Assembly (NCBI RefSeq): GCF_001013905.1
Contig: NZ_LN831790.1
Location: forward strand, 744,001 to 808,000
DNA: 64,000 bases
Direction of reading: 5' to 3'
Source: Streptomyces leeuwenhoekii
GTDB lineage: Bacteria; Actinomycetota; Actinomycetes; Streptomycetales; Streptomycetaceae
Position numbers and translations under genes: made by a program. Within the stretch, counting starts at the first letter, position 1. Each line of letters begins with the position of its first letter. Of this stretch, positions 1-32,068 are shown piece after piece. A model generated the notes under the pieces. It made no database searches. It worked only from the letters and a program-made list of their open reading frames with translations, and had not been told where the DNA came from.

Positions 1-3000
1 TGAACCAGCCGACCGTGCGCGACAGGTCCGCCTCGAAGCCGTCGCCGAGGTCCTCCCGGCCGTGCCCCTCGACACCGACCAGGACCGTGTCGCGCCCGCA
101 CCAGCGGGCCAGGGCGCGGCCCAGGGCGCTCAGCAGCACGTCGTTGACCTGGGTGCGGTAGGCGTCGGGGACGCGGCGCAGCAGCGCGTCGGTCTCCTCG
201 GGCTCCAGCGTCACGGTGACGGTGGCGGCGGTGCCGTGGGTGTTGGGGCCGGGCCGGCCGGGGGGCAGGCCGGCCGGGGCGGCGCAGGTGCGGGTCCAGT
301 ACTCCAGGTCGGCGTCGAGGGCTCCGGAGCGGGTGTGCTCCTCCAGCCGGGTCGCCCAGGTGGTGTACGCGGTGCCCGCCGGGGGCAGGGCGGCGGGCCG
401 GCCGGCCACGGCGTCGCGGTAGGCGGTCTCCAGGTCGGCGAGCAGGATGCGCCAGGAGACACCGTCGACGGCCAGGTGGTGGAGGGTGAGGACGAGCTGG
501 GACGGGTCGCCGTCGAAGAGCAGGGCGCGTGCCACCCTGCCCCCGGCCGGGTCGAGGGAGCTCTGCGCGGTGTCGACGGCGCGCTGGATCTCCTCCTCCG
601 CCGCCGGTCCGGTGTGGCGGGTGAAGACACCGCCCGGGGCCTCGGGCAGGACCTCCTGGCGCCAGCCGTCCGCCGTGTGCCGGAAGCGGGTGCGCAGGGC
701 CGGGTGGTGGTCCACGAGCGCCTCGACCGCCCGCTGGAGCGCCTCGGCGTCCGTGTCCGGGGCCAGGCTCAGGCGCTGGGTCATGGTGAAGCGCAGGCGG
801 TCGCCCGGGCCGCGGTCGTCGAGGTACCAGTGCTGGATGGGGGTGAGCGGTGCCTCGGTCGGCGCCGGGGCCGCGGTGGGCCGGGGTGCCGTCTCGGTGA
901 CCGACAGGGCGAGTTCGGCGACCGTCTGGTGGCGGAAGACGTCCTTGGTCGTCAGGGCGAGGCCGGCCTGGCGGGCGCGGGAGACGATCTGGATGCTGAG
1001 GATCGAGTCGCCGCCCAGGGTGAAGAAGTTGTCCCGCGCGCCGACCCGTTCGACGCCAAGGACCTGTGCCCAGATCGCCGCCAGTGTCTCCTCGGTGCCG
1101 GGGCGCGGCGCCACGTACGGGGTGGTGCTGTCGGGCTGCGCGGGCGGGGCGGGCAGCGCGCGCCGGTCGGTCTTGCCGCTGCTGGTGCGCGGGATGCGGG
1201 CGAGCGGCACGAACGCGCCGGGCACCATGTGGCCGGGCAGGGTACGGCGCAGCCACACGCGCAGTTCGTCGGCGGGCGGGACGCGGTCCCCGGCGGGTAC
1301 CAGATAGGCGGCGAGCAGGGCGCGGCCCGCGTGCTCGCGGGCGGCCACGGCCGCGTCGGCGACGTCCGGGTGGGCGAGGAGCGCGGCCTCCACCTCGCCG
1401 GGCTCGATGCGGAATCCGCGGATCTTGACCTGCTCGTCGGCCCGGCCGAGGAACTCCAGCCGTCCGTCGGCGTCCCAGCGGGCGCGGTCACCGGTGCGGT
1501 ACATCCGCTCCCCCGGCGTGCCGAACGGGTCGGCGAGGAACCGGGCGGCGGTCTGCCCGGGCCGGTTCAGATAGCCGCGGGCCACCTGCGGCCCGGCCAG
1601 GTACAGCTCGCCGGGCATCCCGGGCGGCACCGGCCGCAGGGCGCCGTCGAGGACGTAGGCGCGCAGGTTGCGGCCGGGGCGGCCGACGACCGGCCGGTCG
1701 GGGCCGTCGGCGCAGGGGCCGTAGACCGCGTCGACGGTGGTCTCGGTGGGGCCGTACATGTTGTACGCGTGCACGCCGAGGTCCCGCGCCGCGCGCAGCT
1801 CCCGCCAGGTGGCGGCGTCGACCGCCTCGCCGCCGACGAGCAGCAGGCGCGGGTGGTGGCGGCCGGGGGCGAGGAGGCCGGCGGCGAGGAGTTCGCGCAG
1901 GAAGGACGGGGTGACGTTGACGAAGTCCAGTCCGTGGCCGGCGATCTGCGCGCAGAACGCCTCCGGGTCCAGGCGGGTGTCCTCGTCGACGAGGTGCACC
2001 TGGTGGCCGAGGGCCAGCAGCAGCGGTCCCTCCCAGGAGGTGTCGAAGGAGAAGGAGGCGCTGAGCGCGGCGCGCAGCCGGCGGCCGTCGGCGGTGTGCG
2101 GGGCGAGGAGGCCGTCGCGGTGGTCGAGGCAGAGGTTGACGAGCTGGCGGTGTTCGACGGCGACGCCCTTGGGGCGGCCGGTGGAGCCGGAGGTGTGGAT
2201 GACGTAGGCGGTGTCGTACGGGCTCAGCGGCCGGCGGCGGTCGGCGTCGGTGGGGTCGTGGGCGGGCAGCCGGTCCCAGGGCACGGCGCGCAGGGCGTCG
2301 GGGGTCAGCACCGTCCGGGCCCCGGTGTCCTCCAGCAGCAGCGCCACGCGTTCGGCGGGCAGGTCCGGGTCGATCCACTGGAGGGCGGCGCCCGCCTTGA
2401 GCACCGCCAGCAGCGCGACCAGGGAGTCGCCGGTGCGCGGCAGGCGTACCGCGACCACGTCCTCGGGGCCGTTCCCGAGGGCGATGAGGTGGTGGGCGAG
2501 GCGGTTGGCGCGGGCGTTGAGCGCGGCGAAGTCGTAGGTGGCGTCGCCGGCCACGACGGCGGTGGCGTCCGGGGTGCGGGCGGCCTGGGCCTCGAACAGG
2601 GCGGTGAAGGTGGTGTCCGGCACCGGCAGCCGGGCGCCCTGCCAGTCGTGCAGGACCCGGCGCCGCTCGGCCTCGGTGAGCAGCGGCAGTGCGCCGGCCG
2701 GGCGGTCCGGGTCCTCGGCGGCGGCCTGGAGCAGCAGCCGGAGCCGGTCGGCGAGGCGTTCGGCGGTGTCCGCGTCGAACAGGCCGGTGCTGTACTCCAG
2801 ATAGCCGGTGAGGCCGCCGTCCCGCTCGACGAAGTCGAAGGCGAGGTCGAAGGTGGCGTGGCGGACCGGCGGGGTGACCGGTTCGACGTCCAGGCCGGGC
2901 AGGGCGGGGGCCTGGGCGCCCAGGTTGTGCAGCGCGACCATGACCTGGAACAGCGGGGTGCGGCTGGTGTCCCGCTCGGGCTGGAGGGCGTCCACCACCT

Positions 3001-30568: not shown

Positions 30569-32068
30569 TCAGGCGGTGCGCGCGGACCGTGGGGGCGAGG
30601 CCGGTGCGCAGGCGGGCCCGTCCGGGCGGCGGGAGAACGGCACGGTCCCGCCCGTCGCGGGGGATGCCGGGCCGGGGGCGCGTGAGCCGGAGGTGTCCGG
30701 CGCGGAGGTGCCCGTCCCCGCGTCCGCGGTCCGGCGGGCCGCCCGCCCGGAGATCTGCACGCGGTCGAGGACGCCGGTCAGGGGGTCGCGGTGGAAGTGC
30801 CCCGCGCTTTCGCGCCGGCCGGTCGCCGGGTCGACGAGGTCGCAGCTCAGGTCGGCGTAGCACACCAGGGGCAGTGGCAGGTCGCCGTCGATGGAGAGGA
30901 CCGGGGAGCCGGCGGCGTCCAGGCTCACGCGGTACTCGGTGGTGCCGTTGCGGTAGGTGCCGGCGCACTCGGGGAGCGCGATCGGGTGGCCCCGGTCGGG
31001 CGCGGGGGCGGGTGTGGTCGGCACCGCGAGGCCGGTGAGCGCGTCGAGGTCGTCGGTGAGGTCGCGCCACAGGGCGGTGGCGGAACTGGAGTTGCCGGTG
31101 AAGGCGACGACGACGCCGGTGCCGGGCTCGGCTCGCAGATGGCAGGAGGTGCCGTGGGCGTTGCCGTCGTGGCCGCACCACCAGCGGTCCTCGCGCCGGA
31201 ACAGGGCCGGGCCGGGTCCCCAGGCGTCGGCCAGGGCGCCGGGGCGGGCTGCGGGCTCGGGCCGGCGCATCGGCTCGGCGGCGGAGGGCGGCAGGGCGGT
31301 GGAGCGCCCGACGAGGGCCCGGCCGAGGGCGAGCAGATCGAGGGCGCCGGCGAGCAGCGCGCCTGCGGGCGCTTCGGCGGGGGCGAGGTTCTGCGCGACG
31401 GACAGCAGGCGGCCGGAGGCGGTGTTGCGGGCGTGGCCGGCGGCGACGGGCCGGTCGGGTGCGGGTCCGCCGAGGAAGGCGGGGCGGGTGCCGAGCGGGT
31501 CGAGGAGGAGCGCCTGTATCGCTTCCCGCCAGGTCATGCCGGTGACTTCTTCGATCAGCCGGCCGGCGGCCGTGTAGCCGGCGTTGGAGTAGGAGAAGCC
31601 GGTGCCGGGTGCGAACAGGACGTCGCGGGGGGCGCAGGCCGACGCGAGGTAGCGGGCGGTGGTGAGGCCGGCGGCGGTGTCGGAGTCGGGTCCGCTCGGC
31701 AGCCCGGCCGTGTGGCTGAGCAGGTGACGTATGGTCACCTCCGGTAACGCGCGCAGCTCCGGCAGGATCGCGGCGGCGGGCTCGTCGAGGTCCAGGTCGC
31801 CGTCGTCGGCGAGGAGCAGGACGGCCGCGGCCGTGTAGAGCTTGGTGACCGAGCCGAGCGGGACGGCCGTGTCGGCGGTGAAGGGGCGGCCGGTGGCGGC
31901 GTCGGCCGTGCCCGTGTGCACGCTGATCACCTGGGTACCCGTGTGCACGGCGAGCTGGGCGCCGGGCACCCCGTGGGCGCGGGCGAGTTCGTCCAGACGG
32001 TTCTGGAGCGTGCGGCGGTCGGGGGACGGCAGCCGTTCGGCGACCGGAGCGGCGGTGGGGTACGGCAT
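30569..32068 (-). CDS. Stand-alone PBP-type thioesterase/peptide cyclase (SurE-like)
   Basis: This 499-aa protein has a beta-lactamase/penicillin-binding-protein fold. It shows the active-site set S73-V-T-K76, Y160-S-N162 and H300-D-G302 (the HxG that replaces KTG). A beta-rich lipocalin-like segment follows at about residues 340-440 and then a Pro/Ala-rich tail. No signal peptide or transmembrane segment is visible, unlike a true cell-wall PBP. In the established SurE family such proteins act in trans on NRPS-bound peptides and close head-to-tail macrolactams, usually after a terminal D residue. It sits 142 bp upstream of an NRPS that shows no TE, which supports that role. The ATG at 32068 has AGGAG 10 nt upstream. 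A resistance beta-lactamase or D-aminopeptidase is the main alternative. Confidence 0.85.

What the first reader, a model, noticed from the sequence alone, without database searches (positions are those of the whole stretch)
1..32068. Probable head-to-tail cyclic peptide made by a TE-less NRPS with a trans PBP-type cyclase
Seen: the line begins with A-T (no starter C), residue 1 has no E, the last visible module has E, no TE is in view, and a SurE-type SxxK/YxN/HxG protein is next to the NRPS genes. Known: SurE-family cyclases join an L N-terminus to a D C-terminal residue. Inference: if the second NRPS ends just after the cut E domain, the product is a cyclo-octapeptide with chirality L-D-D-D-L-D-L-D containing D-Val3 and L-Thr7. 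I do not recognise such a compound.
Basis: partly seen in the sequence, partly recalled or inferred. Interest (0 to 1): 0.78.

Follow-up and report, generated by a model that had tools for sequence, protein, structure and literature searches.

The report
Ten-unit ring peptide assembly cluster
This stretch holds most of a bacterial assembly line that probably builds a ten-amino-acid ring peptide and closes the ring with a separate, penicillin-binding-protein-like enzyme; the ring-closing chemistry is of a known type, but the same cluster recurs in many Streptomyces and its product could not be named here.

Summary
The left flank was read (window = G000:C3:744001-808000). The second NRPS runs 8.1 kb further and adds two modules: A-T|CATE|CATE|CATE|CAT + CATE|CAT|CATE|CAT|CATE, ten modules, terminal E, no TE found. 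The likely product is a cyclo-decapeptide, L-D-D-D-L-D-L-D-L-D, not an octapeptide. The C domains split by tree into LCL and DCL types as the E domains demand. The 499-aa protein falls in one clade with SurE and Ulm16 (98/95), apart from the R61 DD-peptidase and 15 own-genome paralogues; catalytic residues are invariant in 14 of 14 aligned members. P450, cyclase, NRPS1, NRPS2, MbtH and a GNAT acetyltransferase form one block, kept in four of five relatives read in full. 51 of 73 cyclase relatives show family-type codes at A1-A3. Codes fit Val3, Thr7, Val9; probably aromatic 1, 5, 10; basic 6, 8; piperazate/proline-like 2, 4. Ring closure of this kind is known (surugamide, desotamide); the decapeptide is unidentified. 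In three relatives the module 2 A domain has lost its core in frame while the module 4 A domain is full length.

The parts
1..11866 (-). NRPS2, 6667 aa, ATG at 11866; the gene runs on to window coordinate -8137 (G000:C3:735863). Modules 6 (CATE, 7319-11740), 7 (CAT, 4049-7195), 8 (CATE, from 3982 down past position 1), then outside the window 9 (CAT, -515 to -3541) and 10 (CATE, -3611 to -8089)
   Evidence: ORF and stop read in the left flank; domains by motifs and own HMMs; Pfam of the last 699 aa gives AMP-binding_C, PP-binding and Condensation only
11881..30426 (-). NRPS1, 6181 aa. Modules 1 (A-T, 28675-30405), 2 (CATE, 24193-28605), 3 (CATE, 19672-24066), 4 (CATE, 15154-19548), 5 (CAT, 11974-15030)
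30569..32068 (-). stand-alone PBP-type thioesterase/cyclase, 499 aa; S73, K76, Y160, N162, H300; G236 lines up with the SurE C-terminal-residue pocket glycine (G235 as I count it through the alignment, assuming a 20-residue tag)
32167..33468 (-). cytochrome P450, first gene of the block; probable tailoring oxidase
   Evidence: PF00067 E 1.2e-28; P450 over 55% identical in 59 of 73 relative loci

Best explanation
A complete, operon-like biosynthetic cluster (P450, cyclase, NRPS1, NRPS2, MbtH, GNAT) for a head-to-tail cyclic decapeptide. NRPS1 starts with a free L-amino acid on A1-T1 and builds residues 1-5; NRPS2 takes over the pentapeptidyl chain and adds residues 6-10. Six E domains set D at 2, 3, 4, 6, 8 and 10, and a DCL-type C domain follows each D residue except the last. 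The last E domain leaves a D-residue on T10. The stand-alone PBP-type enzyme takes the chain onto Ser73 and the L-N-terminus attacks, closing the ring. Predicted core: cyclo[L-aromatic, D-X, D-Val, D-X, L-aromatic, D-basic, L-Thr, D-basic, L-Val, D-aromatic], X being piperazate- or proline-like. P450 and GNAT probably decorate the peptide (oxidation; acetylation of a basic side chain, or self-protection). Shown: gene order, domain order, no TE found, phylogeny, conservation. Inferred: residue identities, ring closure, roles of P450 and GNAT.
For: Ten modules, terminal E and no TE found, by reading 8.1 kb left of the window. Tree of 45 C/E domains from three genomes: the 15 C domains that follow an E domain form one clade (100/100), the 12 others lie apart, the 18 E domains form one clade. 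Cyclase best PDB matches are SurE 6ksu (E 3.6e-64) and Ulm16 8fek (1e-57), the next is 7.6e-28; 17-row clade with SurE and Ulm16 at 98/95, excluding R61, IS11 and 15 own-genome PF00144 paralogues. Review PMC11735501 (passages): PBP-type TEs act in trans and join an N-terminal L residue to a C-terminal D residue; SurE also serves a decapeptide. Same ten-module order in five other genomes read in full, ten A domains in line in three more, ten module positions in a further three. P450 and GNAT kept in 4 of the 5 read in full, MbtH in 5 of 5; in 3 of 3 genus genomes that were seen with the cyclase and searched the GNAT lies about 41 kb from the cyclase. A1/A5/A10 lie in a clade (98/96) with a DAWTVAAV (Phe-type by recall) domain and A2/A4 in one (100/99) with a DVFSVAAYA (Piz-type) domain. 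Val and Thr codes: PMC9113097; Piz codes: PMC9866976.
Against: No activity, expression or product evidence. SurE gave mainly linear surugamide F in one study (PMC7459860, passage), so a linear decapeptide is possible. The A2/A4 code differs from the Piz codes at the last positions; no piperazate-synthase-like gene was found in the block, and the two PF04299 proteins elsewhere in the genome match no NCBIfam model above its cut-off. Aromatic at 1, 5 and 10 is not firm: PMC7565604 quotes DALVMGAV as aromatic but tells that the similar DALWMGVV takes Val, Leu or Phe. In an on-resin screen SurE did not cyclise N-terminal Phe or Tyr peptides, though a Trp thioester was accepted (PMC9491159, passages). 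The A-domain tree had only eight outside domains, known by code alone. The C/E tree carries a warning that the long E and DCL branches may be drawn together falsely, and the LCL group is weak (75/70). Structure prediction, meant to test the lipocalin-like domain, could not be run.
Confidence: 0.87

Rival explanations
1. The line makes the same decapeptide but releases it mainly as a linear acid, with the PBP-type protein acting mostly as a hydrolase, or with a hydrolase elsewhere.
For: Surugamide F was found as a linear decapeptide, and in one study SurE turned its thioester over mainly to the linear acid (PMC7459860, passage).
Against: Terminal heterochirality (L1, D10) and the cyclase's kinship fit ring closure; among the 20 neighbouring ORFs scanned with Pfam (10 on each side, reaching about 11 kb from the block) no thioesterase or alpha/beta-hydrolase was reported. 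The nearest alpha/beta-hydrolase seen is at 46506-47399. Not all flank ORFs were scanned.
Confidence: 0.08
2. Cyclo-octapeptide, the second NRPS ending after the cut E domain.
For: The eight visible modules have the stated chirality.
Against: The ORF continues without a stop through modules 9 and 10 to -8137 and the two extra modules are kept in five other genomes.
Confidence: 0.01
3. The 499-aa protein is a cell-wall DD-peptidase, esterase or beta-lactamase that happens to lie beside the NRPS, and release is by another route.
For: It belongs to PF00144, which holds such enzymes; the genome has 17 PF00144 matches; NCBIfam lists only class C beta-lactamase and similar models among its best 25, all far below their cut-offs.
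Against: It falls in a clade with SurE and Ulm16 and apart from R61, IS11 and 15 paralogues; a relative lies within 1 kb upstream of a family-type NRPS in 51 of 73 loci; no other release domain was found in NRPS2.
Confidence: 0.04

Closest known systems
Surugamide / cyclosurugamide F system (SurE)
   Same: TE-less NRPS pair, stand-alone PBP-type TE, L start and D end, ten residues in the surugamide F line (PMC7459860, PMC11735501, passages)
   Different: The sur cluster holds 18 modules and makes an octapeptide too, with a beta-amino acid in surugamide F (PMC7459860); here one ten-module line with P450, MbtH and GNAT. The cyclase is in a separate lineage from SurE+Ulm16 inside the same clade
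Ulleungmycin, desotamide, wollamide, pentaminomycin (Ulm16, DsaJ, WolJ, PenA)
   Same: Same ring-closure logic
   Different: Products of five or six residues (PMC7459860, PMC7565604, passages).
Tyrocidine / gramicidin S cyclic decapeptides
   Same: Ring size; predicted mix of aromatic, Val and basic residues
   Different: TycC TE closes a D-N-terminus to an L-C-terminus and is fused to the NRPS (PMC11735501); here L to D with a trans PBP-type enzyme
Unnamed TE-less NRPS + SurE clusters of the survey told in PMC7459860 section 5.2 (166 organisms from 1421 actinobacterial genomes, 4-10 modules)
   Same: This cluster very likely falls in one of those subnetworks
   Different: The survey paper itself is not held, so membership could not be checked

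Membership tests
PBP-type thioesterase (SurE family) | Stand-alone PF00144 protein with catalytic Ser, Lys, Tyr/Asn, His | tested here: met
   S73, K76, Y160, N162, H300 present and invariant in 14 of 14 aligned sequences, 14 being chosen from 73 loci plus the window
PBP-type thioesterase (SurE family) | Groups with proven members rather than PBPs or beta-lactamases | tested here: met
   Clade with SurE and Ulm16 98/95, excluding R61, IS11 and 15 paralogues; no class C beta-lactamase of known activity was in that tree
PBP-type thioesterase (SurE family) | C-terminal lipocalin-like domain | tested here: inconclusive
   Sequence alignment to SurE runs to query residue 446, chain residue 470 of 471; structure prediction not available
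PBP-type thioesterase (SurE family) | Next to a TE-less NRPS that starts with an L residue and ends with D or Gly | tested here: met
   By domain order and C-domain type; residues themselves not seen
PBP-type thioesterase (SurE family) | Catalyses head-to-tail macrolactamisation | not testable with these tools
   Needs enzyme assay
Desotamide family of cyclic peptides | Six to ten residues, ring closed by a SurE-type cyclase | tested here: inconclusive
   Genes fit: ten modules and a SurE-type protein; product not seen
Desotamide family of cyclic peptides | At least one Trp or Phe | tested here: inconclusive
   A1, A5, A10 lie in a clade with a Phe-type A domain (98/96), but their codes DALLIGSIV, DALLVGSVV and DALLIGSVV were found in no paper searched

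The most novel reading that the evidence does not exclude
A widespread, conserved and so far unassigned family of cationic amphipathic cyclo-decapeptides in Streptomyces and allied genera (Streptacidiphilus, Streptantibioticus, Catenulispora, and a recoded version in Crossiella), made by a dedicated PBP-type TE lineage, in which module 2 of some members has lost its A-domain core and is loaded by A4 or another A domain.
Probability: 0.45. Interest if true: 0.55.

Novelty: new member of a known kind. Interest (0 to 1): 0.42.

Why it matters
PBP-type thioesterases are wanted as ring-closing catalysts (PMC11735501, passages). In the passages I saw, tested members handle four to ten residues and only SurE is told to serve a decapeptide. 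A dedicated lineage for ten-residue chains, kept in many strains, would give a ready set of natural variants. If the product is unknown, 7 of 100 other genomes drawn from the window's genus (the threshold lets in relatives of 57-58% identity, which may differ) would carry an unread cyclic peptide pathway. Members with a broken A2 would test loading across modules.

Tried and rejected
Octapeptide product: rejected by the left flank. True DD-peptidase or unrelated PF00144 enzyme: rejected by tree. Naming the compound by pocket code: nine-letter and eight-letter strings gave no paper; six-letter strings gave 36 papers, 20 of them listed, mostly chance hits, with four NRPS papers holding DVFSVA and one holding DAYWWGG; I read passages of two of the four, both about piperazate, and of the fifth. 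A tighter search gave none. My first hand reading of the A2/A4 code (DVFGVAIVY and DVFAVAIVY, used) was off by one column and corrected to DVFSVAIVY. Piperazate at positions 2 and 4: left open; no synthase gene found in the block, and the two PF04299 proteins in the genome are not assigned by NCBIfam. P450 role: PDB matches are broad macrolide and other oxidases, not telling. GNAT: best named models are bleomycin-type N-acetyltransferases at 33.5 and 27.6 bits against a cut-off of 625, so only a hint. MbtH: over the Pfam cut-off (78.2 bits) but no NCBIfam model reported it. A strict GS[VIA][TS]K pattern missed about half of the 72 relatives; in the aligned rows the difference is GSLTK for GSVTK, Ser and Lys being kept; the rows not aligned were not checked.

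Structure of the cyclase: five attempts, machine busy each time. Larger prevalence samples (n 400 and 300) failed; n 100 worked. One Pfam call of ten proteins failed on my wrong coordinate and was not repeated, so window 59999-61540, 62584-63795 and 52536-52958 and the further left-flank genes in it were not scanned.
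Full report
Place and gene order. The window is G000:C3:744001-808000 of an 8.12-Mb genome. I took 20-kb stretches on either side and joined them to the window. On the minus strand lie, in transcription order, a P450 (32167-33468), the 499-aa PF00144 protein (30569-32068), NRPS1 (11881-30426, 6181 aa), NRPS2 (11866 down to -8137, 6667 aa), an MbtH gene (-8454 to -8251) and a GNAT acetyltransferase ORF (-9063 to -8506). Fourteen bases separate the stop of NRPS1 from the ATG of NRPS2. Beyond the P450 the scanned genes look unrelated: TPR protein, peptide deformylase, pyridine nucleotide-disulphide oxidoreductase and others.

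Domain order. Motifs and profile HMMs built from these domains give NRPS1 A-T|CATE|CATE|CATE|CAT and NRPS2 CATE|CAT|CATE|CAT|CATE. The last domain match is an E domain ending 15 residues before the stop; Pfam on the last 699 residues reports no thioesterase.

Stereochemistry. In a tree of 45 C and E domains from the window, Streptacidiphilus and Crossiella, the 15 C domains downstream of an E domain form one clade (100/100); the 12 other C domains lie apart (75/70 as one group) and the 18 E domains form one clade (100/100). The program warns that the long E and DCL branches may be drawn together falsely. In the window this means DCL at modules 3, 4, 5, 7 and 9 and LCL at 2, 6, 8 and 10, which is what E domains at 2, 3, 4, 6, 8 and 10 require. 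All six window E domains keep HHxxxD, EGHGR and RTVGWF; the pattern FNYxG was found in five of six (not E6). The HMMs behind the domain labels were built from the window's own domains, so the tree, not the HMM scores, is the test.

Cyclase. The 499-aa protein has PF00144 at 5e-56. Among PDB chains it is nearest to SurE (3.6e-64) and Ulm16 (1e-57); a third match, IS11, is at 7.6e-28 and the R61 DD-peptidase at 1.2e-24. In a tree of 35 rows (window, 15 chosen relatives, four PDB stretches, 15 paralogues) it sits in a 17-row clade (98/95) with SurE, Ulm16 and NRPS-adjacent relatives; R61, IS11 and the 15 PF00144 paralogues of its own genome fall outside. The own genome has 17 matches, one being the cyclase; one more, L151, was left out. 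The place of the window's lineage relative to SurE+Ulm16 inside the clade is not resolved. A Colwellia sequence, L084, joins only weakly (85/73), and two paralogues have very long branches. SurE, Ulm16, IS11 and R61 were entered as the aligned stretches printed by the search, so they are not full length. In an alignment of 14 family members S73, K76, Y160, N162, H300 and G236 are invariant. The review PMC11735501 (passages) states that PBP-type TEs join an L N-terminus to a D C-terminus and that SurE Gly235 lies in the pocket thought to take the C-terminal D residue.

How widespread. A pattern scan of the 84,980-species collection with the cyclase gave 73 loci. 62 of 73 have a scored A domain in the stretch held; 58 of 73 have the A1-type code DALL[IV]GS[IV]V, and 51 of 73 have family-type codes at A1, A2 and A3; the other 11 had no scored A domain, several being short. 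Five clusters read in full (S. bungoensis, S. seoulensis, Streptantibioticus, Streptacidiphilus, Crossiella) have the same ten-module order; the first four also share codes at all ten positions with few changes, Crossiella differs at 4 and 6-9. S. actinomycinicus, S. galbus and S. echinatus each show ten A domains in line. P450 over 55% identity is in 59 of 73 loci; MbtH in 5 of 5 and P450 and GNAT in 4 of 5 fully read relatives. In a sample of 101 genus genomes, own included, 8 have the cyclase at E 1e-130 or better; four of the 8 are at 57-58% identity and may be a side branch. Three of the 8, besides the own genome, were also in the GNAT search, and all three have the GNAT about 41 kb from the cyclase.

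Residues. Published codes give Val for DAYWWGGTFK, DAYFWGVTFK and DAFWLGGTFK and Thr for DFWNVGMVHK (PMC9113097, passages); the window has DAYWWGGTF (3), DFWNIGMVH (7) and DAFWWGGTF (9). A1, A5 and A10 (DALLIGSIV, DALLVGSVV, DALLIGSVV) lie in a clade with a DAWTVAAV domain and another (98/96), the former the Phe-type code as I recall it; PMC7565604 quotes DALVMGAV as an aromatic code but also a similar one that takes Val, Leu or Phe. A2 and A4 (DVFSVAIVY) lie in a clade (100/99) with an S. aurantiacus domain that I read as DVFSVAAYA, the piperazate code of PMC9866976, and a domain of unknown substrate. A6 and A8 (DTEDMGFVD, DTENLGMVD) look basic from acidic pocket residues; that is recalled, not looked up.

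What is known. Ring closure by a stand-alone SurE-type enzyme is established, and a survey told in PMC7459860 section 5.2 (that section read whole) counted 166 organisms with such systems from 1421 actinobacterial genomes, of 4-10 modules. This cluster is very likely among them. I found no product for it; the library holds openly licensed papers only, so it may be known elsewhere.

Side finding. In two Catenulispora species (L067, L079) and Streptomyces sp. CB02056 (L070) module 2 keeps C, T and E in frame but its A domain has lost the part with the substrate pocket. In all three genomes a full-length domain, 59% identical to the window's A2, stands at the A4 position; its code there was not read, but in the window and in the four streptomycete-type clusters A2 and A4 share the DVFSVA code. 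The simplest reading is that T2 is loaded by another A domain, A4 being the first candidate. Draft assembly error cannot be excluded, though two lineages show it.

Noticed in passing
L067:14561-15469, L079:14401-15426, L070:14655-15092: Module 2 A domain has lost its substrate-binding core in frame in three relatives, C, T and E being kept, with a full-length domain at the A4 position: possible loading of T2 by another module's A domain.
   Followed up: partly
window -9940 to -9137 (L010:10060-10863, +): Stray carrier-protein plus half condensation domain ORF beside the GNAT gene, preceded in another frame by what looks to me like a phosphotransferase fragment: remnant of another NRPS or a recombination scar.
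   Followed up: no
module 10 E domain, window -6746 to -8089: The terminal E domains (window, Streptacidiphilus, Crossiella) lie outside the clade of 15 internal E domains (97/95); they hand over to a trans cyclase instead of a C domain.
   Followed up: no
L088-L090: Crossiella has the same ten-module order but different codes at 4 and 6-9; the basic-type codes move from positions 6 and 8 to 7 and 9, and P450 and GNAT were not found in the 60 kb.
   Followed up: partly
window 30569-30720: The window's cyclase has about 50 extra C-terminal residues against the stretches aligned from relatives, which end near residue 450; some relatives were matched further, to residue 480-499.
   Followed up: no
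L018, L023, L069, L070, L071, L072, L076, L082: Cyclase relatives over 60% identical without the P450 in the stretch held; some stretches are short.
   Followed up: no
window 47414-50530: Archease next to RtcB, an RNA-ligase pair as I recall.
   Followed up: no
window 55398-59975: Glutamate-cysteine ligase family and histidine-specific methyltransferase family genes, suggesting an ergothioneine cluster (the pathway is recalled).
   Followed up: no
L083, L086: Lentzea and Actinophytocola relatives of the cyclase lie beside other NRPS lines with different codes.
   Followed up: no
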